Shown here one piece after another: positions 2,377 to 45,989 of a stretch of 64,000 nt of DNA. A program made the position numbers and the translations under genes. Under the pieces are notes generated by a model. The model was not told where the DNA came from and ran no database searches. It saw only the letters and a list, made by a program, of their open reading frames with translations. This DNA is from Glutamicibacter soli (GTDB taxonomy: Bacteria; Actinomycetota; Actinomycetes; Actinomycetales; Micrococcaceae): positions 62,001 to 126,000 of the forward strand of contig NZ_POAF01000004.1 in the NCBI RefSeq assembly GCF_003309065.1. The letters run 5' to 3'. Positions within the stretch are counted from its first letter, which is position 1; the number at the start of each line of letters is the position of its first letter.

Positions 2377-4994
<2,618 letters not shown>

Positions 4995-27761: not shown

Positions 27762-29519
27762 CTACCGCTTGAGTCCCGGGATTCGGCGCAGCAGGGGGCC
27801 CAGGAACCCGTCCAGTTCAGGAACCTTGGTCTTGTAGAGCAAACCGATGAAGACCACGGCCATGACGCCGCCCACGACGACCACCGTGATGATGGCGGTG
27901 ATCAGCGAGTCGTAGGCGAATCCGAAGTTGAAACCGCCCATGAGCCACAGCACCAGACAGCCCACCAGGGCTGAAACGGTGGCCATCCAGCCGATGCGCA
28001 CGTAGGTGTCGATGACCCCGGTGATGCCGTAGTCGCCGTACCGGCATTTGACCAGGTAGTGCGTGCCGATCGCGCCGAGCACGTTGGTCAGGCCGTAGAT
28101 GAACGCGATGGCGGAGGCGATGTGCAGCGGGTCGACCACGGCGGCCGCGGTGAACGCGAGCACCAGGCCCAGGGCGGCGGTGGCCGTCTGGATCAGCATC
28201 GGGGTGCGGGTGTCCTCGTCGGCGAAGAACACGCGCAGCATGAAGAACTGCAGGGACTTGAACGGCAGGCCCAGCGCGGTCAGCACCAGCAGCTGGCCCA
28301 GCGCACCGGCGGCCTGCGCGGCGTACTCGGAGTTGCCGGCGAACAGGCGTCCCAGCGGGCCGGCGAGCACGATGAAGACCAGCGTGCAGAAGACGATGGG
28401 AATCGCGGTCGAACGCATGCCCTGGCTGAGCAGGCCGCCGACGTCCTTGCGGCGGTTCTCATGGAAGGCGCGGGTGAAGTCATTGAACAGCACGGTGGCG
28501 ACGGTCAGCGCGAACAGCGAGTGCGGCAGCACGGTGATCAGCTGCGAGGTGTTCAGCGCGTACTCGCCGGCCACGGAGGCAGCCTGTTCGGGAGGCAGCT
28601 CGGTACGCGCCGCGGTCGCGGCGGAGACGATCTTTGAGTACAGCAGCGAGGAGACGTTGCCGATGACCATGGCGGCCAAGGTCCAGATGGCCAGCTTGCC
28701 CACGTGTCGCAGTCCCATGCCGCGCCAAGAGAAATCGAGCTTGAGCTTCAGCCCGGTCTTCTTCAGGGGCCACAGCAGCACAACCGACTGCATCACGATG
28801 CCCAACGTCGCTCCGCCGGCCAGCCAGATGGTTTTGCCGGTGGTCCAGGTATCCATCGGGTCGCCGGAGGAGTAGGCACCGAAGGTGATGATGAATGCGC
28901 CGATGACCAGCAGCTGGATGATGTTGTTGACCGCAGGGGCCCACATGAACGCCGCGAACCTGCCGTGGGCGTTGAGCACCTGACCGAGCACCGCGTACAG
29001 GCCGTAGAAGAAGACCTGCGGCAGCGACCAGTAGGCGAAGGCCGTGCCCAGCACGATCATCGGCTCGGTCCAGTTGTGGGTCAATGCCACGATCAGGGGC
29101 CTGGCGCACAGCGTGAGGATCACGGCCATCGCGCCCATGACAACCATCGTGAGGGTGATGAGCTTGGAGGTGTAGGCGGCGCCCCGGTCCGCGGCCTTGG
29201 AGGCCTTGATCAGCTGTGGGATCAGCACCACGTTGAAGATGCCGCCGGCCAGCAGCATGAAGATGATCGTCGGGATGACGTTCGCCTTCTCGAAGATGTC
29301 CGCCACCGAGGTCACCGAGCCAATGGCCATGGCCAGCAGCGCCGTGCGCACGAAGCCCAGGATTCGGGACACCAGGGTGCCCGAGGCCATCAGGGCATAG
29401 ACCTTCGACCTGGAACCGCCGGAGGCGGCCGGGGTCTTGGCTGCCGGTTCGGGAACCATTTCCAAAGCTCCGGTTACCGGGTGGTCGGAGCCCTGAAAGG
29501 AATTAGGAACCTGAGACAT
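27762..29519 (-). CDS. murJ: lipid II flippase MurJ (MviN)
   Basis: The 585-residue polytopic membrane protein of the MVF family flips lipid II across the membrane for peptidoglycan synthesis. Family segments include GTLVSRILGFVRTALLAMAI, FEKANVIPTIIFMLLAGGIF and the later PIVFCTLVFIVLAGPLGRLF, with about 14 hydrophobic helices. A polar N-terminal tail of about 38 residues precedes the first helix. The start overlaps the end of the Nudix gene by 17 bp. The regulatory pseudokinase domain found fused in mycobacterial MviN is encoded separately 117 bp downstream. Confidence 0.93.
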   Translation of the reverse strand: MSQVPNSFQGSDHPVTGALEMVPEPAAKTPAASGGSRSKVYALMASGTLVSRILGFVRTALLAMAIGSVTSVADIFEKANVIPTIIFMLLAGGIFNVVLIPQLIKASKAADRGAAYTSKLITLTMVVMGAMAVILTLCARPLIVALTHNWTEPMIVLGTAFAYWSLPQVFFYGLYAVLGQVLNAHGRFAAFMWAPAVNNIIQLLVIGAFIITFGAYSSGDPMDTWTTGKTIWLAGGATLGIVMQSVVLLWPLKKTGLKLKLDFSWRGMGLRHVGKLAIWTLAAMVIGNVSSLLYSKIVSAATAARTELPPEQAASVAGEYALNTSQLITVLPHSLFALTVATVLFNDFTRAFHENRRKDVGGLLSQGMRSTAIPIVFCTLVFIVLAGPLGRLFAGNSEYAAQAAGALGQLLVLTALGLPFKSLQFFMLRVFFADEDTRTPMLIQTATAALGLVLAFTAAAVVDPLHIASAIAFIYGLTNVLGAIGTHYLVKCRYGDYGITGVIDTYVRIGWMATVSALVGCLVLWLMGGFNFGFAYDSLITAIITVVVVGGVMAVVFIGLLYKTKVPELDGFLGPLLRRIPGLKR

Positions 29520-30042
29520 ACTTCGTTAGAACCTCGCGTGCCAGTTCTGCAATCCGGCGCTCATTGGGGAAGGACAGGCGTTTGCCCAGGGCATCGAGCG
29601 GCACCCAGGCAACATCCACGGCTTCGTGATCGGGATCGTTCTCGATGGTCAGATGCCCGCCGGTGGCTTCCAGTAGGAAATGGTGCACGGTCTTGTGCAC
29701 CCGATAATTCGTCACGGTGAACCAGTAGTCAACCGAACCTAGGGGTGCGAGGATCTGCCCGGCGATGCCGGTTTCCTCCTCGATTTCGCGGATGGCCGCT
29801 TCCTCGTTGGTTTCTTCGCCTTCCGGGTGGCCCTTGGGCAGGCACCATTCAAGGCGTCCGCCACGGTTGTAGCGCGCGATGATCGCCACCGGAAAATCCG
29901 GTTTCTCGAAGTCGATGACGATGCCTCCGGAGGAGACTTCCTCGACGGTTGGCAGACTCGTGTGACCGCCAGTTGCCTGCGCGCGGGCCATTGACGCAGT
30001 CAACGGCGTGCGCTTTGGGGCAGACGGGATCGGTCGGTTCAT
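29503..30042 (-). CDS. Nudix hydrolase
   Basis: The 179-residue protein has the Nudix box in full: GHPEGEETNEEAAIREIEEE followed by TGI, matching GX5EX7REUXEEXGU. An N-terminal extension of about 35 residues precedes it. The family hydrolyses nucleoside diphosphate derivatives; the segment EWCLPKGHPE is seen in Ap4A- or ADP-ribose-type enzymes. Gene order Nudix-murJ is common in actinobacteria, next to the divergent CCA-adding enzyme. The substrate cannot be told from sequence. Confidence 0.88.
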   Translation of the reverse strand: MNRPIPSAPKRTPLTASMARAQATGGHTSLPTVEEVSSGGIVIDFEKPDFPVAIIARYNRGGRLEWCLPKGHPEGEETNEEAAIREIEEETGIAGQILAPLGSVDYWFTVTNYRVHKTVHHFLLEATGGHLTIENDPDHEAVDVAWVPLDALGKRLSFPNERRIAELAREVLTKYVSGS

Positions 30043-30166
30043 GAATCCACTCTATCTAGAAAGTGCCCTCCTTCGCCTTATCGACGTGGGCAAGTAAGTG
30101 ATCTCGCTGGCAATGTCACTGATTTTTGAAGCAAACTCGCGGGATTTCTGGCACGCTTAAGGAACT

Positions 30167-31615
30167 ATGCATGCACTCCCCACTCATGACGCGCTGCGTC
30201 AAATCCTGCCTTCGGTCATTTTTGAGCTCGCCGACCGATTCGTCCGGGCAGGTCATGAGCTATCCCTGGTGGGCGGTCCGGTCCGCGACCTGTACCTTGG
30301 CAGGGTTTCGCCCGATCTCGACTTCACCACCAGCGCACGGCCCGAGGAAACCTTGAAGATTGTTTCCGGCTGGGCGGACAATACCTGGGATGTGGGTCGG
30401 GAGTTCGGCACCATCGCCTTCAAGAAGGGCGAGCACACCCTTGAGGTCACGACCTACCGAGCTGATGCCTATGACAAGGATTCCCGCAAGCCGGTGGTGG
30501 CCTTTGGCGACAACCTGCATGATGACCTTTTCCGCCGCGACTTCACCATGAATGCCATGGCGCTGCGCCTGCCGGAGCTGGAGCTGGTTGACCCATTTGA
30601 CGGCGTCTCGTCGCTGACCGACCAGCAGATCCGCACTCCCGGTTCGCCGGACATCTCCTTCTCTGACGATCCGCTGCGCATGATGCGCGCGGCACGTTTC
30701 GCCTCGCAGCTGAAGATCGAAGTGAGCTCGGAAGTACGTCAGGCCATGAGCGAAATGACCGATCGCATCGAGATCATCTCCGCCGAGCGCGTGCGCGATG
30801 AGCTGGTCAAGCTGATCAACGGAGCGGATCCCCGCGCGGGCATCGATCTGCTGGTGGATACCGGCCTTGCCGATCGTGTTCTGCCCGAGGTCTCTGCCCT
30901 GCGTCTGGAAATCGACGAACACCACCGCCACAAGGATGTGTACCAGCATTCGCTGACGGTGCTCGAGCAGGCCGTGGAACTTGAAACGGATGCGGAAGGC
31001 GCTGTGCCCGGTCCGGACTTCATTCTGCGCTTCGCCGCGCTCATGCACGACGTGGGAAAGCCGGCGACCCGGAAGTTCGAGCCTAGCGGCGCAGTATCTT
31101 TCCGCCATCACGACATGGTTGGCTCCAAGCTGGTCAAGGCGCGCATGCGCGCCCTGCGTTTCGACAAGGACACCACCAAGGCGGTGGCTCGCCTGGTCGA
31201 GCTGCACATGCGATTCTACGGCTACGGAGACGCCGGATGGACCGACTCGGCGGTGCGCCGCTACGTGACGGATGCCGGCAGTCTGCTGGAGCGGCTACAC
31301 CGGCTGACCCGCTCGGACGTCACGACGCGCAACCGGAGGAAGGCAGAACGGCTCGCCTTCGCCTACGACGACCTCGAGGCGCGTATCGCTGCCATTGCCG
31401 AGCAGGAAGAGCTTGATTCGATCCGCCCGGACTTGGGCGGCGAGCAGATCATGGCTATCCTCGGAATTCGCCCGGGCCCGGTAGTAGGCCGAGCCTACAA
31501 GTTCATGCTGAACCTGCGTCTTGACGAAGGCGTGCTGGGTGAGGAAATCGCCAGCGAGCGACTGCGCCAATGGTGGGCGCAGCAGCCGGAGTCCCAACCG
31601 AGCGTTACTGAATAG
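30167..31615 (+). CDS. cca: CCA-adding tRNA nucleotidyltransferase
   Basis: The 482-residue class II nucleotidyltransferase adds CCA to tRNA 3' ends. None of the tRNAs seen in this window encodes CCA. The catalytic head has LVGGPVRDLYLGRVSPDLDF, then RRDFTMNAMALRLP, and the template motif RMMRAARFASQL. An HD domain follows (FILRFAALMHDVGKPATRKF, near residues 285-304), typical of actinobacterial Cca. It is divergent from the Nudix gene. A clear terminator follows. Confidence 0.95.
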   Translation: MHALPTHDALRQILPSVIFELADRFVRAGHELSLVGGPVRDLYLGRVSPDLDFTTSARPEETLKIVSGWADNTWDVGREFGTIAFKKGEHTLEVTTYRADAYDKDSRKPVVAFGDNLHDDLFRRDFTMNAMALRLPELELVDPFDGVSSLTDQQIRTPGSPDISFSDDPLRMMRAARFASQLKIEVSSEVRQAMSEMTDRIEIISAERVRDELVKLINGADPRAGIDLLVDTGLADRVLPEVSALRLEIDEHHRHKDVYQHSLTVLEQAVELETDAEGAVPGPDFILRFAALMHDVGKPATRKFEPSGAVSFRHHDMVGSKLVKARMRALRFDKDTTKAVARLVELHMRFYGYGDAGWTDSAVRRYVTDAGSLLERLHRLTRSDVTTRNRRKAERLAFAYDDLEARIAAIAEQEELDSIRPDLGGEQIMAILGIRPGPVVGRAYKFMLNLRLDEGVLGEEIASERLRQWWAQQPESQPSVTE

Positions 31616-31636
31616 TAGCGTCTGACTAGTTTGATA

Positions 31637-31675
31637 ACGGAGAGCCTGATTCCCTGCGGGAAATCAGGCTCTCCG
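31637..31675 (+). terminator. terminator after cca
   Basis: An 18-bp stem, ACGGAGAGCCTGATTCCC with GGGAAATCAGGCTCTCCGT (one bulge), closes a TGC loop. The T run is weak (TGTTC). Confidence 0.75.
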
Positions 31676-31857
31676 TGTTCCCAGCTGAAATTTGCTTAAA
31701 TAAAATATTGAAATAGCTGGCGTAGGTGCATTTGCCCATGTATGCTGAATACTGTGATTGGGAAGTCTCAATGAGAATTCCGAATCGAAAAGTTATCCAA
31801 ATACAGTCTCGCGTTGAACGCGATTGACTCAGAGCAGATTTCAGGAGGTGGGACACG

Positions 31858-31971
31858 ATGAATATGAATCAGACCTTTATGACCGATCGCCCGGTGCGAT
31901 CCGGCAATGGCATTTCTGCGCCCAATGGCCATCGCTTCGTCTCCCCAACCTCCGGAACAGCGGATTCCTAA
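31858..31971 (+). CDS. unknown 37-aa protein
   Basis: An excellent ribosome binding site (AGGAGG) lies 8-9 bp before ATG 31858. The 37 residues begin MNMNQTFMTDRPVRSGNGIS and end PTSGTADS. There is no signal peptide or hydrophobic segment. An intrinsic terminator follows 22 bp after the stop. I do not recognise the product. The combination of strong ribosome binding site and dedicated terminator supports a real small gene or a leader peptide for the downstream pair. Confidence 0.5.
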   Translation: MNMNQTFMTDRPVRSGNGISAPNGHRFVSPTSGTADS

Positions 31972-31993
31972 AATCATCTAGGCATCACGACAT

Positions 31994-32044
31994 AGTTCCT
32001 GAGGTTGAAAGTCAGTAATCGACTCGCACCTTAGGAACTTTTTT
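31994..32044 (+). terminator. intrinsic terminator or attenuator between small genes
   Basis: AGTTCCTGAGGT (31994-32005) pairs with ACCTTAGGAACT (32028-32039), twelve pairs with one wobble, followed by six T. The next small gene begins at ATG 32046, directly after the T run, so this may be an attenuator rather than a simple end. Confidence 0.75.
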
Positions 32045-32045
32045 C

Positions 32046-32204
32046 ATGTCTGCTCCACTTTTCGCCACGGCAGCCCAACGCGCAGTTCGGACCTCGGAAC
32101 TAATCTTCGCTGGACCGGAAAGCCTGAAGGCTCGTGCAATCTCTACAACCCGTCAAGATCTTCCTTCACCTCTGACCATGCGCGAAAGGAGGGAAAGCAA
32201 ATGA
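32046..32204 (+). CDS. unknown 52-aa protein
   Basis: The frame MSAPLFATAAQRAVRTSELI... to ...TMRERRESK starts immediately after the terminator T run and has no obvious ribosome binding site. Its stop overlaps the next start in ATGA (32201-32204), which suggests translational coupling. It is basic and without membrane segments. I do not recognise it, and it could be leaderless or non-coding. Confidence 0.35.
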   Translation: MSAPLFATAAQRAVRTSELIFAGPESLKARAISTTRQDLPSPLTMRERRESK

Positions 32205-32323
32205 CAAGACGCCAGGACAAGCGAAAGAACAAATACCTTGATAGCGCCGAATTCAGCCGTAACATGCGCCAGCGTGAGTTGAAGAACCACGTGCCGCCAG
32301 AAATGTACTTCCGCATTCGATAA
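32201..32323 (+). CDS. unknown basic 40-aa protein
   Basis: ATG 32201 is preceded by AAAGGAGGG with spacing of about 7, a strong site. The 40 residues are highly charged, beginning MTRRQDKRKNKYLDSAEFSR and ending HVPPEMYFRIR, which suggests nucleic-acid or ribosome contact. A 9-bp perfect hairpin follows 3 bp after the stop. No family is recognised. Confidence 0.5.
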   Translation: MTRRQDKRKNKYLDSAEFSRNMRQRELKNHVPPEMYFRIR

Positions 32324-32326
32324 GTA

Positions 32327-32351
32327 CTGATAACGCCATTACCGTTATCAG
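32327..32351. other. perfect hairpin after the 40-aa gene
   Basis: CTGATAACG (32327-32335) pairs with CGTTATCAG (32343-32351) around a 7-nt loop. No T run follows, so it could be an operator or an mRNA 3' hairpin. A further GC hairpin (GCCCGCCGGC/GCCGGCGGGC, near 32402-32428) may be the actual terminator. Confidence 0.5.
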
Positions 32352-32517
32352 CACCATCGAACCAAGGAGTACGTTATGAACTCGCCGATCAATTCTCAGA
32401 GGCCCGCCGGCCTGCAAGCCGGCGGGCTTCCCGCATTAATGGATAGATGCGGATGGCCGTCGGAATCGGAACGAACAAGGCCCCATCTCGGATTTGAATC
32501 AAATACTGCGGCAACAA

Positions 32518-32560
32518 CAACAGCCGGTGCTGAAATCAAGGATTTCAGCACCGGCTGTTG
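32518..32560 (-). terminator. terminator of inositol-phosphate synthase
   Basis: A perfect 20-bp stem (32518-32537 with 32541-32560) has an AAG loop, and TTGTTGTTG follows on the minus strand. It begins 12 bp after the stop codon. Confidence 0.85.
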
Positions 32561-32572
32561 AATTGGCGAAGC

Positions 32573-33658
32573 TTAGCGCTCGACGTCTCCGCGGATGAAG
32601 GCTTCGACCTTCTGGCGGGCGCTCTCGTCGTCGTACTGCTCTGGTGGCGACTTCATGAAGTAGCTGGATGCCGACAGGATCGGTCCGCCGATACCGCGGT
32701 CCAGCGCGATCTTGGCGGCGCGCACGGCGTCGATGATGACACCAGCGGAGTTCGGGGAATCCCAGACCTCCAGCTTGTATTCGAGATTGACCGGGGCATC
32801 GCCGAAGTTGCGGCCCTCGAGGCGCACGAATGCCCACTTGCGGTCGTCAAGCCAAGCAACATAGTCCGACGGGCCGATGTGCACGTCGTCCTCGCCCAGT
32901 TCGGCCGAGGTGTTGGAGGTGACGGCCTGGGTCTTGGAGATCTTCTTGGATTCCAGGCGATCGCGCTCGAGCATGTTCTTGAAGTCCATGTTGCCGCCGA
33001 CGTTGAGCTGGTAGGTGCGGTCGAGCACCACGCCGCGGTCTTCGAACAGCTTGGCCATCACACGGTGCGTGATGGTGGCGCCGATCTGGGACTTGATGTC
33101 GTCGCCCACGATCGGAACGCCTGCATCAGTGAACTTCTGGGCCCACTCCGGGGTACCTGCGATGAACACCGGCAGGGCGTTGACGAAGGCAACGCCAGCG
33201 TCAATGGCGCACTGTGCGTAGAACTTCGCGGCCTGCTCGGATCCAACCGGCAGGTAGCAGACCAGTACGTCGACCTTGTCGTCCTTCAGGGTCTGGACAA
33301 CATCGACCGGCTCGGATGCCGATTCTTCGATGGTCTGGCGGTAGTACTTGCCCAGGCCGTCCAGGGTGTGGCCGCGCTTGACGGTCACGCCAGTGGTGGG
33401 GACATCGGCAATCTTGATGGTGTTGTTCTCGCTGGCGAGAATTGCCTCGGACAGATCGAGGCCGACCTTCTTGGCGTCGACATCAAAGGCGCTGACGAAT
33501 TGCACGTCGCCGACGTGGTATTGGCCGAACTGCACATGCATCAAACCGGGAACGGTGGAATCTGCATCGGCATTCCGGTAGTACTCGACACCTTGGATGA
33601 GTGAAGTGGCGCAGTTACCTACGCCAACGATGGCAACGCGAATCGGGTTCGCCGACAC
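32573..33658 (-). CDS. ino1: myo-inositol-1-phosphate synthase
   Basis: The 361-residue NAD-dependent enzyme converts glucose-6-phosphate to inositol-1-phosphate, the entry to mycothiol and phosphatidylinositol in actinobacteria. The N-terminal Rossmann motif is [20 protein letters not shown]. The catalytic region has [20 protein letters not shown], then [13 protein letters not shown] and [16 protein letters not shown]. The C terminus has [20 protein letters not shown]. It stands alone with its own terminator. About 295 bp upstream without a gene contain an inverted TGACAGT/ACTGTCA pair (about 33898 and 33930) that may be a control site. Confidence 0.95.
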
Positions 33659-33953: not shown

Positions 33954-35192
33954 TCATGACGAAGATTTGAGGTCTTGCCGGCCATCGTTGTTCAGGAATC
34001 TTCTAATTTTCTGCAGTATGCGCACTACGGGCGTGGGAAGCGCTGTGCGCAGCCGCTGACGCATCGGCTGGTTCCTGACCAACGCAAGAATTTCAGCGTC
34101 GGTCACCAGCCGGCCTTGACGGGCCTGATAAGCCAAGATCGACATCGACTCGTGAACACTGCCGTCCATCCGGTGGAAATAATTCTCCCTTAACCAGGCC
34201 TTGGCGGGAACCGGGAAATTGAGAGCTTCGAGCTCATCCATGGTGCCGAGAATGTTCGATCCGCGGAAAACCTCATTGATCATCTGTTCGTTCACACCGA
34301 AATCCGAAAGGATCATTGTTGGCAGTCCTCGATCCAATGACTCGAGCGCGGCAGTCGACGATACTGTCACTAGCGCGCTGCCGGGCGTCAGCGCGTTGGA
34401 CATTGTGCCGGTTTCGAATCTCAGGTGGGAATGAGGCCCCAGCCTGCCGGCGGCCTGAAGCTCGTCGCAGAGCTGATCATAGGGGAATGCTTCAAGATGC
34501 GTCTGCGGTTCTCCTGCACGGGCCCGCAACTTGACGACCACTTCGAGACCTGGGTTCAGCCGTGCGGCCCGCTCGAGGGCCAGCAGGATTTTTTCGCGAT
34601 CTTCTCGGGTGTAGGGAACTTTTGCCTGCGGAGCGAAAACGACCCTCCGGATCTCGCCATGGGTCACCGGCGGGAACCCGGCCGAATACAGGAATGGCAG
34701 CTTGCTGACCATGATGGTCGGATGGTGACCCGGCTGTTCCTCCGTCATGAACGAGAAATCCCGGGCCTCGGCGTGCGAATGGCAGATGAACGCATCCCCG
34801 GCGCGGCGGTAGTTCCATCCCTTCGCAGTAGCCGGGTAGGCGACACCGGGGAGCGCGGAGACCAAGGCGGTACGGCGCGCCTGCGCCGGCTCCGAGCGCA
34901 GGATCCGCGAATAGGCTTCGGCGACCACCGGCCCGGTGGCCGCGGCGAACACGATGTCCTCGGGGATCGAATCCGCATTCAGCTGATGCAGCGTCATGAA
35001 TTGCAGGTCTCGCTGGTCCAAGCTAGTTCCGGCGAACGCCGCGGCAATCTGTTCCTCGGTAGGCATCACCGGTGTGCGAACCAGGGCAACCCGACGGTCC
35101 CACGCAGGGCCGAGCCGGTCCAGGAAGGTCACTGCCAGCTTCAGGTAGGAATCAGAATCGGCGATGGCGAGAATGGATGGATTCACGAACAT
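33954..35192 (-). CDS. putative glycosyltransferase (DUF6716-like)
   Basis: The 412-residue protein is the last gene of the nonulosonic acid operon and starts 1 bp after the preceding stop codon. It has alternating alpha/beta segments with GT-B features: ALVSALPGVAYPATAKGWNY, then ICHSHAEARDF, then VVFAPQAKVPYTREDREKIL, LEVVVKLRARAGEPQTH and the late LVTVSSTAALESLDRGLPTM, which resembles the nucleotide-site Ser-Thr loop of sialyl- and polysialyltransferases. From memory it resembles a family named DUF6716 in Micrococcaceae; I could not check this. It probably transfers a sugar during assembly of the same glycan. Confidence 0.6.
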   Translation of the reverse strand: MFVNPSILAIADSDSYLKLAVTFLDRLGPAWDRRVALVRTPVMPTEEQIAAAFAGTSLDQRDLQFMTLHQLNADSIPEDIVFAAATGPVVAEAYSRILRSEPAQARRTALVSALPGVAYPATAKGWNYRRAGDAFICHSHAEARDFSFMTEEQPGHHPTIMVSKLPFLYSAGFPPVTHGEIRRVVFAPQAKVPYTREDREKILLALERAARLNPGLEVVVKLRARAGEPQTHLEAFPYDQLCDELQAAGRLGPHSHLRFETGTMSNALTPGSALVTVSSTAALESLDRGLPTMILSDFGVNEQMINEVFRGSNILGTMDELEALNFPVPAKAWLRENYFHRMDGSVHESMSILAYQARQGRLVTDAEILALVRNQPMRQRLRTALPTPVVRILQKIRRFLNNDGRQDLKSSS

Positions 35193-35193
35193 T

Positions 35194-36249
35194 TCAAACC
35201 TTCAGAGAGCTGGAAAGGTGTTCGCGCAGCGGCACCGGGGTTGACTCAGTCCACCATGATTCCGGGACTGCTTGGGGATAGAGCTGCCGCGCGTCATTGC
35301 CCAGCAGCAGGCGCAGGGACGGGATGACTGTCGAAGGCAGTGCGCGGATTTCCTGGCCGGGACGCAGCACACGCAACCGCATCTCGATCGGAACCGTGTG
35401 CTGCTTGGGCACAACGTTTCTGATCTGGCTGATCTTCTCCAGGAATTCTGCGGTTTCGCGGCGGTGCGGAAAATACGCGACCGGACCGTCTGCGGCGATG
35501 GACTTGATCCATTGGAGATAGGGCTCCTCATGGATCAGGCCGTCGGCCGCCATGGCGGAGCCTATCAGCAGCGTCGGCTCGGTGAAGCGTTCGGCCACCG
35601 GCTGGGTCGAAAGCCATTCGAACTTATGCTGCGCAAATTTGATGCCCAGCTCGGCCATGCGGCGCTGGGTGTCGGGGGAGACCAGCAGCGCGGAGACGAT
35701 CAGCAACCGGCCCTCGCGGGCCAGCTGGCGCAGCCGGTGCCACATGGCCAGGCCCATGGCGGTGCGCGCGGCGGAATTCCTGGCACGAGCGCGGACCAGT
35801 GGGGCCGGTTCCTCGGCCACCAGCTGGTTGATCAATGCCAACGTGGCCAGGCCGTCGTCGATGATGACAACTTCCTTGGCTTTCACCCCGGCCAGCAGCG
35901 CGCGCTGGACCTTGCCCGAGTAGGCGTCCCCGGCGACGAAACGGTCGGTGGAGGACTTCGGCGCCGGCGGCTTCCGCGCAGCCTGCACGAATTCCACACC
36001 GGCCGGCGCCTGGGCCAACAGGGCCTGAGTCGTGGCTTCCAACGGCATACCCTGCCGCGGCACGATGCGCACCTCATGGCCCAGCAGGCCGGCCGCGTGG
36101 GTCTCCACCGCGGAGAGCAGCTGCAGCGGGGACTCCACCCAAACCGAGGCCGCGCCGAAGCGCGGGCGCGGCACCTCGGAAGTGTCGTGGCGGGACAGAT
36201 TAATGGACATGGAACGGGAGAATCCTTCGCTGCGGACGGCGACGGTCAT
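35194..36249 (-). CDS. sialyltransferase-like glycosyltransferase (GT52-type motifs)
   Basis: The protein has 351 residues. VWVESPLQLLSAVETHAAGL near residue 36 resembles the N terminus of GT52 sialyltransferases. VVIIDDGLATL near residue 127 fits the bacterial sialyltransferase D/E-D/E-G motif, and VAYFPHRRETAEFL near residue 253 fits the HP motif that binds CMP. These motifs are shared by GT38, GT52 and GT80. With neuA and neuB in the same operon, it likely uses a CMP-activated nonulosonic acid. ATG at 36249 overlaps the upstream stop by 4 bp. Confidence 0.7.
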   Translation of the reverse strand: MTVAVRSEGFSRSMSINLSRHDTSEVPRPRFGAASVWVESPLQLLSAVETHAAGLLGHEVRIVPRQGMPLEATTQALLAQAPAGVEFVQAARKPPAPKSSTDRFVAGDAYSGKVQRALLAGVKAKEVVIIDDGLATLALINQLVAEEPAPLVRARARNSAARTAMGLAMWHRLRQLAREGRLLIVSALLVSPDTQRRMAELGIKFAQHKFEWLSTQPVAERFTEPTLLIGSAMAADGLIHEEPYLQWIKSIAADGPVAYFPHRRETAEFLEKISQIRNVVPKQHTVPIEMRLRVLRPGQEIRALPSTVIPSLRLLLGNDARQLYPQAVPESWWTESTPVPLREHLSSSLKV

Positions 36250-37598
36250 TGGGCCAGGCGGCTCAGCGACTTGGACAAGGAATCCAGCCCCTTGGAGCCG
36301 CGGCGCAGCACGTGGCGCGAGGCCCCGCGGACCTTCGAGGGCAGGCTACGGCGGGCCGGCAGATGGGCCCAGAGCGGCGGGAGCCCCAGCTTGGTGATCC
36401 GGCGGCGCTTGAAATGCGCCGAGAACTCGGCATAGTGCTCTTCCAGGAAGGCCGACGCTTGATCACGCAGGTGCGGGACCCGGGCCGACTGCATGCAGAA
36501 GGAAACCGCGGCCAGCAACCTCGAGAGCATGTCCTGCCCGGCCAAGTCCCCGCTGTCCCGGGGGACCGGCAGGTCTTGGACGAACAAGGCATGGATGATC
36601 GACAGCGGGATCCGGTTCGAGTTCTCGTACGGCGCCAGCGCCTGCAACATCATGCCGGTGCCCACGGCGCGCACCTCGGTATCCAGGATGTAGCGGGCGG
36701 TGGCCAGGCCCGTGGAGAAGCAGGAGACCACCAGCTGCGGCCGGGCCAGCGCGATCACGGTTTCGGCCAGGTGGTCGGTGCGCAGCAGCCGGAATTCAAG
36801 CCCCAGGTCCGCGGCGGCCTGGGCCAGCCGGACGGCGGCAGTGGGGCTGGCCGAGGGGTGGGCCTTGAACAGCACGGTGTCCAGCCCCGCGGCGCCGACC
36901 TCGCGCAGCATCTGCAGGTGCAGCTCGAATTCCTCCTCGGAATCCAGCAGCCCCAGCGAGCCGAGGTACTGCCCGAGCACCAGCGCCGCGCCCTGCGGCA
37001 GCTCGAGTCTTGCCTGCGCGGCCAGCTGCTCGAACACGACGGCCAGCGCGGAGGCCGGCAGCACCTCGCGCAGCGGGTTAAGCTCGGCCAGCAGCGCCGG
37101 CTCGAGCCCCGGCACCAGGTCCACGTGCAGGGTGCGGGTGATGCGCTGGCGCAGCGGCATGGCCAGGCGGTTGCGGGTGGGCCCGTAGGACATCAGCCCG
37201 TCCGAGTGCACCCAGATTTCCGCGTCGAAGAAGATCCTGGCCAGCGCCTGCGACGGGTTGACCTGGATGGATTCCAGCACCAGCAGCAACGGCTCGTCGT
37301 CCAGGTCCCAGGCGTCGCGCAGCAGCCGCTCGAAGACCATCAGCTCGTCCTCGCGCGGGTTGAACTGCGCGGGGCGGCGCGGGGCCATCAGCTGCGCGTA
37401 GTCGACCACGCGGTCGAAGCGCGCGGCGAGCTGCTCGAAGCCGGGGGAGTCCTGCAAGGGTGTGGTCAGCTCCGGCACCTGGGAGCCGTTGGCCAGCACC
37501 AGGATGCGCTCGTCAGCGGCCGGGAGCAGGCCTGCATCGGCCATGGCGGCCAGGGAAGCGAGCTGGAAATAGCTGCTGGCCTCGACTAATGCGATCAC
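36246..37598 (-). CDS. polysialyltransferase-like glycosyltransferase (GT38-type motifs)
   Basis: The 450-residue protein has WVHSDGLMSYGPTRNRL near residue 129 (D/E-D/E-G-type motif), TVLFKAHPSASPTAAVRLAQ near residue 242 (HP motif), and VVSCFSTGLATARYILD near residue 288 (Ser-Thr motif). This order is that of bacterial alpha-2,8-polysialyltransferases. A basic C-terminal tail (KRRRITKLGL, then RRSLPSKVRGASRHVLRRGS) would suit membrane association. It overlaps both neighbours by 4 bp. It likely polymerises or adds the CMP-activated sugar. The linkage cannot be read from sequence. Confidence 0.72.
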   Translation of the reverse strand: MIALVEASSYFQLASLAAMADAGLLPAADERILVLANGSQVPELTTPLQDSPGFEQLAARFDRVVDYAQLMAPRRPAQFNPREDELMVFERLLRDAWDLDDEPLLLVLESIQVNPSQALARIFFDAEIWVHSDGLMSYGPTRNRLAMPLRQRITRTLHVDLVPGLEPALLAELNPLREVLPASALAVVFEQLAAQARLELPQGAALVLGQYLGSLGLLDSEEEFELHLQMLREVGAAGLDTVLFKAHPSASPTAAVRLAQAAADLGLEFRLLRTDHLAETVIALARPQLVVSCFSTGLATARYILDTEVRAVGTGMMLQALAPYENSNRIPLSIIHALFVQDLPVPRDSGDLAGQDMLSRLLAAVSFCMQSARVPHLRDQASAFLEEHYAEFSAHFKRRRITKLGLPPLWAHLPARRSLPSKVRGASRHVLRRGSKGLDSLSKSLSRLAQ

Positions 37599-38593
37599 TT
37601 GGCGGCTCCGATCGTTCCGGGCTGCAGGAAGGAGAGGATATGGCGGCGGCGGGCCACATCCATCTCGAGCGCTACCTGCAGGGCGGACTGCGGGTCGATC
37701 GAGGTGAAGACCTGGCGCAGCTGCTGCTTCATGGCCAGCCGCACGGCCGGCGGGTAGTGCTTGGCGCGCTTCTCGTGGTGGCAGACGATCGCGAAGAACT
37801 GGCGCAGCGCCTTGGGCAGATGGCGCTCGGCGTCCGGGTGGCTGCGCACGGCGGCCAGAATCCGCTCGTAGGCGGGGATGAACCCGAGCTGGCGTTCGTC
37901 GAATACCTGGGTCAGCGAGCCGGGCAGCCCGCGGCGGTAGAACACGCTAGGGGAGGAGACCACTGCATAGCGTGTGGTGCCCAGGTGCGCCTTCCACAGC
38001 CACAGCCGGTCCTCGGCGCTGCTCAGGTCCGCGTCGAAGTAGAACAGGCCGCGCTGGCGCATCAGCTCGGTGCGGTACATGCCCGCCCAGACGAACGCGT
38101 AGTCGACCATGGAGGGCGAATCGATCGGCTCGATGTCGTCCGCCGGATTCAGCGGCATGCCGCGCAACGCCTGCGGGGCGCGGTGGATGACCCGGTTGGT
38201 GCCGGTGACGCGCACGTGGTCGCTGCGCACGAAGTCCACGTGCAGCCCGGTCAGCGCGTCGGCCAGCACGGCCAGGTGCTCGGGGCTGTACCAGTCGTCG
38301 GGATCCAGGAAGGTGAAATACTCGCCGGTCGCCAGCTGCAGCCCGGCGTTGCGGGCCGCGGAAACCCCTGCATTCTGCGACAGCCGGACCAGCCGCAATC
38401 TGGGCAGCGAGTTGTTGAAGCTTTCCACCAGCGCGGCGGTTGCATCGGTGGAGGCATCGTCCACCACCAGCACCTCGAGGTCCCAGCGGCCCAGCTTCTG
38501 CCGGGCCAGCGAGGCCAGCGCATCGCAGATGTACGCCTCCTGGTTGTAGGCCGGGATGACCACGGAGATGCGGCCGGGGGTCAAGCTCGTCAT
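37595..38593 (-). CDS. GT2-family glycosyltransferase
   Basis: The 332-residue GT-A transferase has VVIPAYNQEAYICDALASL, the nucleotide-binding VLVVDDASTDATAALV, SAARNAGLQLATGEYFTFLD and the metal-binding DPDDWYSPEHL. The C-terminal half is helical with FYRRGLPGSLTQVFDERQ. It may add a linking or backbone sugar. It lies between neuB and the polysialyltransferase-like gene, with a GC hairpin 50-80 bp upstream. Confidence 0.9.
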   Translation of the reverse strand: MTSLTPGRISVVIPAYNQEAYICDALASLARQKLGRWDLEVLVVDDASTDATAALVESFNNSLPRLRLVRLSQNAGVSAARNAGLQLATGEYFTFLDPDDWYSPEHLAVLADALTGLHVDFVRSDHVRVTGTNRVIHRAPQALRGMPLNPADDIEPIDSPSMVDYAFVWAGMYRTELMRQRGLFYFDADLSSAEDRLWLWKAHLGTTRYAVVSSPSVFYRRGLPGSLTQVFDERQLGFIPAYERILAAVRSHPDAERHLPKALRQFFAIVCHHEKRAKHYPPAVRLAMKQQLRQVFTSIDPQSALQVALEMDVARRRHILSFLQPGTIGAAK

Positions 38594-38644
38594 TGCTGCT
38601 CGGCTTCCTTGTGTTCGGTGCTGGTGGAGGTGGATAACACCTAA

Positions 38645-38671
38645 GCGGCCGGACCGGGATGGTCCGGCCGC
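38645..38671. terminator. GC hairpin between neuB and the GT2 gene
   Basis: A perfect 11-bp stem, GCGGCCGGACC (38645-38655) with GGTCCGGCCGC (38661-38671), has no good T run on the minus strand. It could reduce transcription of the transferase genes relative to neuA-neuB or act as a processing site. Confidence 0.45.
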
Positions 38672-38695
38672 CGGGGACTGCGGTGCGGGAACTGC

Positions 38696-39589
38696 CTAGC
38701 CGTCCACGCGGCGCAGGCGGGACAGCGGGGCCAGCTCGCCCGGGAAGACCTTCTTCACGCCGTCGCCCATGGCTTCTTCCAGGATGCGGATGTCGCGGAT
38801 CAGCGAGGCGAAGCCCTTCGGCTCGAGGCTGGAGGCCTGGTCCGAGCCCCACATGGTGCGGTCAAGGGTGATGTGGCGTTCCACGGTCACCGCGCCCAGG
38901 GCGACGGCTGCCAGCGAGATCTGCAGGCCGCGCTCGTGGCCCGAATAGCCCACCGGCACCTGGTAGCGGTCGCGCAGGGTCTCGATCATGCGCAGGTTGG
39001 CCTCTTCCGGAGGCAGCGGGTAGGTGCTGGTGGCGTGCATCAGCACCAGGTTGCTGGTGCCCAGGGTCTCCACCGCCTTGTCGATCTGCTCGATGGTGGA
39101 CATGCCGGTGGACAGGATGATCGGCTTGCCGGTTTCGCGCAGGGCGGTGAGCAGCTCGATATCGGTGACCGAGGCGGAGGCGACCTTGTGGGTCACCGCG
39201 CCCTGCTCCTCCATGAATTCGACGGACGGGACGTCCCATGGGGAGGCGAAGGCGTGCAGGCCCTTGGACGCGGCGTAGGAGATCAGCTCCTTGTACTGCG
39301 CGGCGTCGAACTCCACGCGGTAGCGGTAGTCCAGGTAGGTCATCTCGCCCCACGGGGTGGAGCGGATCTTGTCGCGCATGTCCAGCGGGGTGGAGATCTC
39401 CGGGGTGCGCTTCTGGAACTTCACCGCGTTGGCGCCGGCCTCGGCGGAGATGTCGATCAGCTGCTTGGCGATCTCCAAGTCGCCGTTGTGGTTGATGCCG
39501 ATCTCGCCGATCACGTAGACCTGCTGTCCTGCGCCGAGCAGGTTCTCGCCGATGGCTACCGGCTTGATGTCAGTGGTAATCGAGGTCAT
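38696..39589 (-). CDS. neuB: nonulosonic acid synthase (NeuB family, no SAF domain)
   Basis: The enzyme condenses phosphoenolpyruvate with a hexose or its 6-phosphate to give a nine-carbon keto acid. It has the NeuB TIM-barrel signatures VIGEIGINHNGDLEIAKQLI, GANAVKFQKRTPE, FASPWDVPSVEFME, KPIILSTGMSTIEQID, VLMHATSTYPLP, VPVGYSGHERGLQISLAAVA and VERHITLDRTMWGSDQASSL. At 297 residues it stops where typical NeuB proteins (about 340-350) continue into the antifreeze-like SAF domain, so that domain is missing. Which sugar it makes is unknown; see the Kdn argument in the findings. Confidence 0.9.
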   Translation of the reverse strand: MTSITTDIKPVAIGENLLGAGQQVYVIGEIGINHNGDLEIAKQLIDISAEAGANAVKFQKRTPEISTPLDMRDKIRSTPWGEMTYLDYRYRVEFDAAQYKELISYAASKGLHAFASPWDVPSVEFMEEQGAVTHKVASASVTDIELLTALRETGKPIILSTGMSTIEQIDKAVETLGTSNLVLMHATSTYPLPPEEANLRMIETLRDRYQVPVGYSGHERGLQISLAAVALGAVTVERHITLDRTMWGSDQASSLEPKGFASLIRDIRILEEAMGDGVKKVFPGELAPLSRLRRVDG

Positions 39590-39600
39590 GGTACTGCCTT

Positions 39601-40815
39601 TCAGTGGGTGAAATGTGTAAATTCTTGGGTTGCCGCACCGGTTTCGGCGCGGGCTGCGAGCACCAGCTCGGCCAGTTCCCGCACCGCTCCGTGCCCGCCG
39701 TTGCGGGCCAGGGTCAGCCGGGCTGCCTGGGCCACCTGCGGCTGGGCGTCTGCCACGGCCACCGGCCAGCCGACCAGGGACATGGCGCCCAGGTCGTTCA
39801 CGTCGTTGCCGACGTAGGCCACGCGGGCCGGGTTGATGGATTCGTCGGCCAGCCAGCGGGCCAGGTATTCGGCCTTGTTATCGATGCCGTGCGCCACCTC
39901 GACCTTCAGCTTGGCGGCGCGGGCCGCGACCACGGGGTTCGCTTCCTTGGACAGGATCAGGAACTTCACCCCGGCGGCGCGCAGCCGGGCGACGCCCATG
40001 CCGTCCGAGCGGGATACCCGCACGGCTTCGGTGCCGAACTGGTCGACGTAGGCGGTGTCTTCGGTGTGCACCCCGTCGAAATCGGTGACCACCGCGTCCA
40101 CCAGCACCGGGTCAAGATGCTGCTCCTCCTGCAGGGAGGCCAGCAGCAGGTCCGCTTCGGTGTCGATGTCGATCCCGTGCTCGGCAGGGACTTGATGCAC
40201 CGCTACACGTCCGAAGAAGCGGTGGTTCGCGGCCAGGAAGCCTTTCGAGTCCATGGCGTAGAACGCGCCGGTTTCGCGGAAGCGCGGTTCGCGGTCCTGC
40301 CGGCGGGGCCTGACGGACATGTCGTGGCCTACCGCTTGGGCGAGCCCAGCGGCATCCAGCGACCAGTGGAAGCCGTGGTCGGCGACGGCGGCGAAGCTGA
40401 CGTCCAGTTCGCCGCGCAGCACCCGGTTGACCGCCGCGTCCAGATCCGTCGGATCGATGAACGGGCTGGTGCATTGGATGAAGACGGTGGCCTGCGGCAG
40501 GTCCGGTTCGCGTTCAAGCACGTGGACCAGGACCGATTCGCTGGTGGCGGTGTCGCCGGCGATTTCTGCCGGGCGGTCCACCACGCGGGCCCCGTAGGCC
40601 AAGGCTTCGGCCTTGATCCCGGGATGGTCGGTGCTCACCACAACATCGCTGACTGAGGCTGCGGCCTGGGCGGATTCGATGGCGCGTCCCAGCAGGGACT
40701 TGCCGTGGATCCGGCGGAGGTTCTTAAGCTCGATGCCCTTGGATCCTCCCCGTGCGGGGATGATGGCCAGGACCTGCGGCTGATTGGTGTTGCTCACGAA
40801 TTCGACGTTAAACAC
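39601..40815 (-). CDS. neuA: CMP-nonulosonate cytidylyltransferase fused to a KdsC-type HAD phosphatase
   Basis: The 404-residue protein is a two-domain fusion. Residues about 14-230 are a CMP-sialate synthetase: LAIIPARGGSKGIELKNLRR, VVVSTDHPGIKAEAL, then TVFIQCTSPFIDPTDLDAAV and ETGAFYAMDSKGF. Residues about 240-390 are a HAD domain: VDAVVTDFDGVHTED, ILSKEANPVVAARAAKL, VAYVGNDVNDLGAM. The phosphatase would remove the 9-phosphate of a nonulosonate before activation with CTP. It is the first gene of a six-gene operon. The start is GTG 40815 or GTG 40797, both with poor ribosome binding sites. A CACCCGGGTG palindrome lies just upstream (about 40824-40836). Confidence 0.9.
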   Translation of the reverse strand: MFNVEFVSNTNQPQVLAIIPARGGSKGIELKNLRRIHGKSLLGRAIESAQAAASVSDVVVSTDHPGIKAEALAYGARVVDRPAEIAGDTATSESVLVHVLEREPDLPQATVFIQCTSPFIDPTDLDAAVNRVLRGELDVSFAAVADHGFHWSLDAAGLAQAVGHDMSVRPRRQDREPRFRETGAFYAMDSKGFLAANHRFFGRVAVHQVPAEHGIDIDTEADLLLASLQEEQHLDPVLVDAVVTDFDGVHTEDTAYVDQFGTEAVRVSRSDGMGVARLRAAGVKFLILSKEANPVVAARAAKLKVEVAHGIDNKAEYLARWLADESINPARVAYVGNDVNDLGAMSLVGWPVAVADAQPQVAQAARLTLARNGGHGAVRELAELVLAARAETGAATQEFTHFTH

Positions 40816-41083
40816 CCGAGTTAACCACCCGGGTGCGCTGAGGTAAACGCAGGGTGAAGTGCGGGTTTAATTACCTGTTGGTTCGCTGGAGGCCTTGCCG
40901 TCCCCTCTTCGGTGCCATGTCTCCGGACCTTCCGGGGGCCTGGCCGCACCGGGGAATCCGTCGGGGTATTTCGCGGCCCCGCATCGGCGCGTGGACCGCG
41001 GCGCCCGTAATTTTGTGAACCCAAGTGATGAAACATGAGCTGGCGGCGCCGTTCAAATAGGCCCAGCTACTAGGCTGGAGGGT

Positions 41084-44900: not shown

Positions 44901-45989
44901 GTGACCGCACAACCTATCGTCGCGCATTGCCACCCATTTGTCGTGGGTGTCGACACTCACGCACGCAATCATGTCTACGCCATCATCGATTCCAGCAACG
45001 GCGCCCTGCTCGATACCCAGTCGTTCCCAGTCAGCAGCACCGGCATCAACCGGGCCGTCAACTGGGTCGCACGACGCACCCAAGGCGCAGCAGATACCCT
45101 CTGGGTCATTGAAGGAGCTGCCACGTACGGAGCGATCCTTGCCGGCACCGTTGCCGCCCACGGATTCCCCGTCACCGAGGCACCACGCATGAGCAAGAAG
45201 CAGAACCGCGGCGTAGGAAAAACCGATGCCTTGGACGCCCAGCGACTGGCCAGGGCCTCTCTCCCGCTGCCGGTAGACAAGTTGCGCCATCCGCGGCTGC
45301 ATGAAGGAATTCGGCAAAGTCTGCGCATCCTCGTCACGGCACGCAGCTCGATGGCGAAAGACCGCACCAGATCGGTCAACGCATTGAACGCTTTGGTGCG
45401 CTGCAACGGCCTGGGGATCGACGCCCGCAAGAAGCTGACCGGTAGCCAAATCACCGAGGTCAGCCGGTGGCGGGAACGGGAAGAAGAACTGTCGCTGAGG
45501 ATTGCACGCGCCGAAGCGGTGCGACTGGCCAAGCATATTCTGGACTTGGAACAGCAGCTGAAGGCCAATGAGCAGCAGTTGGATGAACTGGTTAGGGTCA
45601 GCGAAGCGGCGCCGTTGTTGGGTGAGATCGGCTTCAAGGCAATCACGGCAGCGAAGTGTTTCGTCGCGTGGTCCCATGAAGGGCGAGTGCGTGATGAGGC
45701 GGCGTTTGCCTGCTTGGCTGGGGTGAATCCGATTCCTGCGTCATCGGGGAACACGACCCGGCACCGGCTTAATCGAGGCGGTGATCGGTCATTGAATTCT
45801 GCCCTGCATATGGCTGCGATCACGCGCATGACCTATGACGAGGAGACGCGAATTTACGTTGAGAAGCGCCGGACTGAAGGCAAGAGCAATCGGGAGATCC
45901 GCAGATGCATCAAGCGTTATCTAGCCCGTCGAATTTTCAAGATCTTCAGTATTTCAGCACAGATCGATGAGGTTCCGGTTGCGGCTTGA
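44901..45989 (+). CDS. IS110-family transposase (bridge-RNA-guided recombinase)
   Basis: The 362-residue protein appears intact. The RuvC-like DEDD domain has VGVDTHARNHVYAI, WVIEGAATYGAIL and GVGKTDALDAQRLA. A helical coiled segment lies near residues 185-235. The C-terminal Transposase_20 domain has FACLAGVNPIPASSG followed by RLNRGGDRSLNSALHMAAI, with the catalytic serine in PIPASSG. It ends 36 bp past the stop codon of the convergent ISL3 gene. Confidence 0.93.
   Translation: MTAQPIVAHCHPFVVGVDTHARNHVYAIIDSSNGALLDTQSFPVSSTGINRAVNWVARRTQGAADTLWVIEGAATYGAILAGTVAAHGFPVTEAPRMSKKQNRGVGKTDALDAQRLARASLPLPVDKLRHPRLHEGIRQSLRILVTARSSMAKDRTRSVNALNALVRCNGLGIDARKKLTGSQITEVSRWREREEELSLRIARAEAVRLAKHILDLEQQLKANEQQLDELVRVSEAAPLLGEIGFKAITAAKCFVAWSHEGRVRDEAAFACLAGVNPIPASSGNTTRHRLNRGGDRSLNSALHMAAITRMTYDEETRIYVEKRRTEGKSNREIRRCIKRYLARRIFKIFSISAQIDEVPVAA

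What the first reader, a model, noticed from the sequence alone, without database searches (positions are those of the whole stretch)
33954..40815. Compact six-gene operon for a nonulosonic-acid glycan, possibly Kdn-based, in a Micrococcaceae-type genome
Seen: neuA-HAD fusion, neuB, GT2, two genes with D/E-D/E-G and HP sialyltransferase-type motifs and a third putative transferase, with 1-bp gaps or 4-bp overlaps among the transferases. No UDP-GlcNAc 2-epimerase, acetyltransferase or aminotransferase gene is present. Known: HAD phosphatases act on the 9-phosphate form of Kdn or Neu5Ac, and some actinobacteria have Kdn-containing wall polymers (teichulosonic acids). Inference: the operon makes a poly-Kdn or similar wall glycan from a common hexose phosphate, with no dedicated export ABC transporter in view. 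Two different sialyltransferase-like enzymes side by side may mean a primer and a polymerase.
Basis: partly seen in the sequence, partly recalled or inferred. Interest (0 to 1): 0.75.

Follow-up and report, generated by a model that had tools for sequence, protein, structure and literature searches.

The report
Probable Kdn-type cell-wall polymer operon
A Glutamicibacter genome carries a six-gene operon that probably builds a phosphate-free cell-wall polymer from a sialic-acid-like sugar, perhaps when phosphate is short, and one of its enzymes is related to NeuE, a protein of the E. coli K1 capsule whose exact role is disputed.

Summary
The gene row is real: six co-directional genes at 33954-40815 (-): neuA-HAD, SAF-less neuB, GT2, X1 (PF07388, NeuS/polysialyltransferase family), X2 (no family), X3 (PF20471/DUF6716). 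Nearest named genomes are Glutamicibacter. The same six genes in the same order occur in 17 of 17 other sampled genomes of the genus and 13 of 13 chosen loci from seven further genera. All six also cluster in 10 of 18 loci elsewhere in the phylum, all from large genomes that I take for Streptomyces, fitting the published PhoP-controlled teichulosonic-acid (Gal-Kdn) cluster SCO4873-4882. Most likely this is a member of that known kind, fed by mannose-6-phosphate. Two additions: (1) a PHO-box-like repeat lies 44-50 bp before the start in 18 of 18 Glutamicibacter operons, and the same pattern precedes pstS-, phoU- and pit-like genes, so phosphate-starvation induction is predicted. (2) X3 is a homologue of E. 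coli K1 NeuE; NeuE-family genes lie beside neuB in six genomes with no NeuS-family gene, which argues against NeuE being only a NeuS helper. The reverse, NeuS-family without NeuE-family, occurs too (G406). No chemistry was measured; structure models were poor and no fold search ran.

The parts
39601..40815 (-). neuA-HAD: CMP-nonulosonate synthetase domain fused to a HAD phosphatase domain resembling KdsC/Kdn-9-phosphatase; conserved start probably GTG at 40797
38696..39589 (-). neuB: nonulosonate synthase of 297 aa without a SAF domain hit
   Evidence: E. coli K1 NeuB has a SAF hit
37595..38593 (-). GT2 glycosyltransferase; adding a neutral sugar of the repeat is inference
36246..37598 (-). 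X1: NeuS/polysialyltransferase-family (PF07388) protein with S-D-G, K-x-H-P and F-S-T motifs
35194..36249 (-). X2: third putative transferase with D-D-G, H-R-R and P-S-T motifs, no database family
33954..35192 (-). X3: DUF6716 (PF20471), homologue of E. coli K1 NeuE
40842..40858 (-). PHO-box-like 11-bp direct repeat TTCACC-N4-GTTTACC, 44 bp before the conserved start codon

Best explanation
The operon makes CMP-Kdn (or a close nonulosonate) from a hexose-6-phosphate and builds it into a phosphate-free, teichulosonic-acid-type cell-wall polymer that partly replaces phosphate-rich wall polymers when phosphate is limiting. Proposed steps: NeuB condenses mannose-6-phosphate with PEP to Kdn-9-phosphate; the HAD domain removes the phosphate; the NeuA domain makes CMP-Kdn; X3, the NeuE homologue, places the first Kdn on a lipid-linked acceptor; X1, of the NeuS family, extends; GT2 and X2 add the other sugar of the repeat or a branch; an unlinked exporter and an LCP ligase finish the job. 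Shown by computation: gene identities, conserved order, co-occurrence, NeuE homology, the PHO-box-like element. Inferred: substrate, order of transfer, wall location, phosphate control, export and ligation.
For: All six genes cluster in 10 of 18 loci (9 genomes of one unnamed large-genome family) fetched from DUF6716-bearing genomes of the phylum. S. coelicolor SCO4873-4882 is described as a teichulosonic/teichuronic acid cluster with neuAB under PhoP (passages; GT2 at SCO4878), its polymer as phosphate-free Gal and Kdn (passages). Same order in 17 of 17 congeners and 13 of 13 loci of seven other genera. In 295 family genomes: DUF6716 56, PF07388 58, X2 58, NeuB 125; PF07388 in 56 of the 56, X2 in 55, NeuB in 55, all four in 54. 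PHO-box-like repeat: 3 exact sites in the 3.84-Mb genome, 17 sites with up to one mismatch against 3 for the reversed pattern; five other sites precede PhoU, PBP_like_2 (PstS-like), PHO4, HAD and acyltransferase genes; present in 18 of 18 operons of the genus, 13 exact and 5 with one mismatch. PF02350: 0 in the own genome. No strong NanE in 26 of 56 DUF6716 genomes. X3-NeuE: PF20471 scores NeuE 56.6 bits, cut-off 27; profile comparison E 1e-10, probability 97%.
Against: No sugar analysis of this organism was found. The own genome and 28 others of the 56 have a strong NanE match, so ManNAc-6-phosphate is not excluded there; PF02350 was tested in the own genome only. In neuA-HAD the best NCBIfam model is PseF and NeuB also matches PseI, all below cut-off. 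No clear PHO box between GT2 and X3 in the ten Streptomyces-like loci; in 14 loci of other genera it is good (0-2 mismatches) in 4; 11 of the 17 genome sites were not resolved; the pattern was chosen after seeing this promoter. In two of the ten six-gene loci (L034, L043) only the NeuA part of neuA-HAD matched. X1 against UTI89 NeuS directly is weak (E 0.0099, probability 4%); the link runs through the Pfam model. SCO genes were mapped by order and annotation, not by sequence; one table lists sialic acid synthase at SCO4880 where my order puts neuB at 4881.
Confidence: 0.75

Rival explanations
1. The operon makes a Neu5Ac polymer: NeuB uses ManNAc-6-phosphate from the NanK/NanE steps of the sialic acid scavenging locus.
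For: A locus with DHDPS-family lyase, ROK kinase, NanE and sialidase genes exists in the genome; NeuB scores best against the NeuB_NnaB model, below its cut-off (251.5 of 399.65 bits); 29 of 56 DUF6716 genomes have a strong NanE match.
Against: 26 of 56 DUF6716 genomes have no strong NanE match, 7 of 18 in the genus, one of these on a single contig (G506); no PF02350 in the own genome; no SAF hit in NeuB; the co-clustering gene set is linked to Kdn in print.
Confidence: 0.12
2. The sugar is another nonulosonate such as pseudaminic or legionaminic acid.
For: PseF is the best NCBIfam match of the NeuA part (113.9 bits, cut-off 205.7) and PseI matches NeuB (209.8, cut-off 340.25).
Against: Both below cut-off; no aminotransferase or acetyltransferase gene in the operon; the fused HAD domain points to a 9-phosphate route. 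Genome-wide searches for such genes were not made.
Confidence: 0.05
3. The product is a lipid-anchored capsule-like polymer, as in E. coli K1, rather than a peptidoglycan-linked wall polymer.
For: NeuS-family polymerases build on lipid-linked acceptors in E. coli K1 (passages).
Against: No exporter in the operon; of six ABC-2 permeases in the genome I looked at two: one is DrrB-like (below cut-off), the other looks like an efflux pair by eye. Actinobacterial Kdn polymers in the papers seen are wall polymers.
Confidence: 0.15
4. X3 (NeuE family) is a non-catalytic scaffold of the polymerase, as proposed for E. coli NeuE.
For: In E. coli K1 overproduced NeuS suppresses the need for NeuE (passages). 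One genome, G406, has neuA, neuB, GT2 and X1 together and no DUF6716 or X2 anywhere, so a NeuS-family enzyme can do without NeuE.
Against: Six genomes have DUF6716 beside neuB and no PF07388 at all; X3 matches KpsS, a Kdo-linker enzyme, locally (E 1.4e-5 over 53 columns).
Confidence: 0.3

Closest known systems
Streptomyces coelicolor SCO4873-4882 teichulosonic-acid cluster
   Same: neuAB and a GT2 in a phosphate-controlled cluster (passages); Streptomyces-like loci hold the same six genes
   Different: There two divergent blocks, with an acyltransferase and methyltransferases nearby in one locus (L040); here one compact operon of six genes; promoter element not clearly shared
E. coli K1 neuDBACES capsule region 2
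   Same: NeuB, NeuA, a PF07388 polymerase (NeuS) and a PF20471 protein (NeuE)
   Different: K1 has NeuC, NeuD and kps genes, a SAF-bearing NeuB and a NeuA fused to a GDSL domain; here NeuA is fused to a HAD phosphatase, there is no NeuC, and GT2 and X2 are added
Bacteroides thetaiotaomicron Kdn pathway
   Same: 9-phosphate route from mannose-6-phosphate with a HAD phosphatase (passages); the Kdn-9-phosphatase model hits the HAD domain
   Different: That hit is below its cut-off (89.9 of 180 bits); the phosphatase is fused to NeuA here

Membership tests
Teichulosonic-acid (Kdn) wall polymer clusters of actinobacteria | gene set neuA, neuB, GT2, PF07388, X2, PF20471 together, as in Streptomyces-like loci | tested here: met
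   identity of those loci with SCO4873-4882 is inferred
Teichulosonic-acid (Kdn) wall polymer clusters of actinobacteria | phosphate-responsive (PhoP) control | tested here: inconclusive
   PHO-box-like repeat in 18 of 18 of the genus and before pst/phoU/pit-like genes; no expression data; not clear in Streptomyces-like loci
Teichulosonic-acid (Kdn) wall polymer clusters of actinobacteria | Kdn in the cell wall | not testable with these tools
   needs wall chemistry
Kdn-9-phosphate route | no need for a ManNAc-forming epimerase | tested here: inconclusive
   PF02350 0 in own genome; no strong NanE in 26 of 56 DUF6716 genomes but present in the own genome
NeuE family (PF20471) | over the curated cut-off of the family that also holds E. 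coli K1 NeuE | tested here: met
   X3 392.6 bits, NeuE 56.6 bits, cut-off 27; hhalign 1e-10
Bacterial polysialyltransferases (PF07388/GT38), X1 | PF07388 over cut-off | tested here: met
   89.6 bits, cut-off 23.3
Bacterial polysialyltransferases (PF07388/GT38), X1 | D/E-D/E-G and HP motifs | tested here: inconclusive
   HP present; S-D-G instead of D/E-D/E-G in the window protein
GT52/GT80 sialyltransferases, X2 | sequence or fold match | tested here: inconclusive
   no Pfam family; 1 of 24 members touches GT52 at E 0.19; hhalign to X1 E 0.0012, probability 19%; model mean pLDDT 65.2; fold search never ran

The most novel reading that the evidence does not exclude
The NeuE family is a CMP-nonulosonate transferase that primes sialic-type polymers across bacteria: the same kind of primer starts the E. 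coli K1 capsule and the phosphate-starvation wall polymer of actinobacteria, with NeuS-type polymerases added or lost around it. If so, the disputed role of NeuE can be solved in harmless soil actinobacteria.
Probability: 0.4. Interest if true: 0.75.

Novelty: new member of a known kind. Interest (0 to 1): 0.6.

Why it matters
It gives the teichulosonic-acid pathway a compact one-operon form kept across a genus, predicts when it is switched on, and proposes roles for its transferases. It also ties NeuE, on which the papers seen disagree (priming, stabilising, export), to homologues that stand beside neuB in genomes without any NeuS-family gene, which makes that open question testable in harmless bacteria.

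Tried and rejected
Led nowhere: PDB sequence searches with X1 and X3 alone and with profiles of X3, X2, X1, no credible hit; Pfam on 24 X2 proteins. A strict Streptomyces PHO-box consensus gave nothing in the window promoter; the looser pattern was read off the upstream stretch shared by four species, so it was chosen after seeing the promoter; the tests less bound to that choice are its place before pst/phoU/pit-like genes and the reversed-pattern control. AlphaFold of X3 (4 rows, mean pLDDT 51.7, pTM 0.37) and X2 (65.2, 0.53): alternating strands and helices in outline, too poor to name a fold. Considered and rejected: chance ORFs; recent transfer into this strain alone (NeuB of the operons of eight genera forms one clade, 31 rows, support 87/88).

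Literature: DUF6716, 0 papers. NeuE with Streptomyces, Arthrobacter or actinobacteria: 12,343 papers hold two of four terms, 40 listed; the four listed that hold the word NeuE are unrelated by title, so a link in print is not excluded. Kdn with Arthrobacter, cell wall, nonulosonic: 30 papers, 20 listed, none on Glutamicibacter by title. Glutamicibacter wall polymers: 448 papers, 20 listed, the word Glutamicibacter in none of the 20. Papers of which I saw passages only: PMC13011467, PMC8003754, PMC11481543, PMC13274773 (reference list only), PMC7831098, PMC6113628, PMC9000132, PMC6200933, PMC2408645, PMC5517516, PMC5654933, PMC2267785, PMC7866108, PMC8269224, PMC4415409. Ostash 2014, Shashkov 2012, Andreishcheva and Vann 2006: seen only as cited there.

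Full report
What is there. Six genes on the - strand between 40815 and 33954 form a tight row: a CMP-nonulosonate synthetase domain fused to a HAD phosphatase domain, a 297-residue NeuB, a GT2 glycosyltransferase, and three proteins called X1, X2 and X3 here. Pfam puts X1 in the bacterial polysialyltransferase family PF07388 (3.6e-25), X3 in PF20471/DUF6716 (1.8e-117), X2 nowhere. NeuB has no SAF hit; the E. coli K1 NeuB has one. Nearest named loci are Glutamicibacter protophormiae, uratoxydans and creatinolyticus, 87, 75 and 60% identical for X3.

It is kept. The six genes stand in the same order and direction in all 17 other sampled genomes of the genus and in all 13 loci that I chose from seven other genera; two of the 13 (L104, L105) have a second X1 copy in the row. 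A fourteenth locus, L114 of genome G406, was fetched because that genome has PF07388 and no DUF6716; it has neuA, neuB, GT2 and X1 but no X2 or X3. Of 295 family genomes, 56 have DUF6716 over its cut-off, 58 PF07388, 58 X2, 125 a NeuB. PF07388 is in 56 of the 56, X2 in 55 (not G481), NeuB in 55 (not G545), all four in 54; PF07388 without DUF6716 occurs in G406 and in the incomplete draft G623. The stop counted inside X2 is, for the window, its own natural stop at the edge of the match. NeuBs of the family's operons form one clade (31 rows, support 87/88), apart from the Streptomyces-like and f4 clades.

Link to a known system. In 396 genomes across the phylum DUF6716 is over cut-off in 17, the own one included. 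From the other 16 I fetched 18 loci: 10 loci (9 genomes, all of family f5) hold all six genes, though in L034 and L043 only the NeuA part of neuA-HAD matched; NeuB and X3 are together in 17; L039, a second copy in its genome, has X3 alone. These loci were picked by X3, so its constancy among them is by construction. Their layout, X1-GT2 divergent from X3-neuA-neuB-X2, fits the S. coelicolor cluster SCO4873-4882, described as teichulosonic or teichuronic acid genes (neuAB) under PhoP (passages of PMC13011467; PMC2267785; PMC8269224). Its polymer is described as phosphate-free Gal and Kdn (PMC11481543; PMC7831098). I did not have the S. coelicolor sequence; the gene-by-gene match is by order and annotation, and one table puts sialic acid synthase at SCO4880 where my order gives 4881.

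A phosphate switch. Upstream of neuA four Glutamicibacter promoters share TTCACC-N4-GTTTACC. S. coelicolor PHO boxes are 11-nt direct repeats with core GTTCACC (passages of PMC4415409). TTCACC-N4-GTTYACC occurs exactly 3 times in the 3.84-Mb genome, once at 40842-40858; with up to one mismatch 17 times, against 3 for the pattern read backwards. Besides the operon, an exact site lies before a PhoU gene and another before a HAD hydrolase; one-mismatch sites lie before a PBP_like_2 (PstS-like) gene, a PHO4-family transporter and an acyltransferase. The other 11 sites were not resolved. In the genus the box is in 18 of 18 operons (13 exact, 5 with one mismatch), 44-50 bp from the aligned start. 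In 14 loci of other genera it has 0-2 mismatches in 4 and is unclear in 10. In the ten Streptomyces-like loci no clear box was found between GT2 and X3. So phosphate control is a well-supported sequence prediction in Glutamicibacter, and only there.

Substrate. The own genome has no UDP-GlcNAc 2-epimerase family member. It has a NanE, inside a locus with a DHDPS-family lyase, a ROK kinase and a sialidase, which suggests scavenging. Of the 56 DUF6716 genomes, counted by hand, 29 have a NanE match below 1e-30 (two of them, G614 and G648, over only part of the model), one (G521) has it in pieces, and 26 have none: 10 no match at all and 16 only weak ones (9e-8 to 9e-4), a few of which touch the Pfam cut-off and which I judge to be other barrel proteins. 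Seven of the 26 are in the genus. So ManNAc-6-phosphate from NanE is not a general need, which favours mannose-6-phosphate and Kdn, the route shown for B. thetaiotaomicron and P. parvum (passages of PMC6200933). Against this, the best NCBIfam models of the NeuA part and of NeuB are PseF and NeuB_NnaB, both below cut-off. That the SAF domain normally helps bind ManNAc is recalled, from no call.

X3 is a NeuE homologue. The control showed DUF6716 in the held E. coli genome. In E. coli UTI89 the annotated DUF6716 protein lies between neuC and the polysialyltransferase, the place of neuE in neuDBACES (PMC5654933). It matches PF20471 at 56.6 bits, cut-off 27, and the X3 profile at E 1e-10, probability 97%, over 248 columns. 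The papers differ on NeuE: an accessory protein not obligatory for synthesis (PMC2408645), a putative priming sialyltransferase (PMC5517516), role undetermined (PMC5654933). I then searched seven whole genomes for the NeuS family: six whose DUF6716-neuB locus seemed to lack X1, and G257, which has X1. The six have no PF07388 anywhere; G257 has one. In five of the six a full neuA-HAD match lies in the locus; in G316 only its HAD part matched. So the NeuE family is not, in general, only a NeuS stabiliser. The reverse case, G406, shows that a NeuS-family gene can also stand without the NeuE family. X3 also aligns locally with KpsS (E 1.4e-5, 53 columns), which makes the Kdo linker with KpsC (PMC5517516 passage). 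It does not align with X1 or X2.

X1 and X2. X1 carries S-D-G, K-x-H-P and F-S-T; in the M. haemolytica enzyme the second acidic residue and the histidine of these motifs act in catalysis (passages of PMC5517516). A direct comparison of the X1 profile with UTI89 NeuS is weak (E 0.0099, probability 4%). X2 has D-D-G, H-R-R and an S invariant over 24 sequences, a weak match to X1 (E 0.0012, probability 19%) and none to NeuS (0.52). That X2 is a sialyltransferase relative is plausible and unproven.

What could not be done. Structure models were poor and the fold search machine was busy each time. No exporter could be assigned: of six ABC-2 permeases I looked at two; one is DrrB-like, below cut-off, the other looks like efflux by eye. 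LCP ligases were not searched.

Verdict. A new member of a known kind: a one-operon form of what is probably the Kdn wall-polymer pathway, with a predicted phosphate switch.

Noticed in passing
L081:6692-12390 (own genome contig C20, about 337-343 kb): Likely sialic acid scavenging locus: DHDPS-family lyase, ROK kinase, NanE and a 955-aa sialidase-like protein, after ABC transporter genes, on the same contig as the operon.
   Followed up: partly
L100 and many hits (e.g. genera g239, g242, g243, g250): Other genomes of the family carry a different NeuB in open frames of about 750-1000 residues, possibly a fusion.
   Followed up: no
L032, L045: Two loci carry two DUF6716 (NeuE-family) genes; possibly a second transferase role.
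   Followed up: no
L104, L105: Two loci of genus g246 have a second, diverged X1 copy in the operon (27-30% to window X1).
   Followed up: no
L115 and L127: PHO-box-like repeats also stand before a HAD hydrolase and an acyltransferase-3 gene of the own genome: candidates for further Pho-regulon members.
   Followed up: partly
window 44901-45989: IS110-family transposase gene on the + strand near the operon.
   Followed up: no
window 29503-33658: The operon sits beside housekeeping genes (inositol-1-phosphate synthase family, CCA-adding enzyme, NUDIX), with the same neighbours in three named Glutamicibacter loci.
   Followed up: partly
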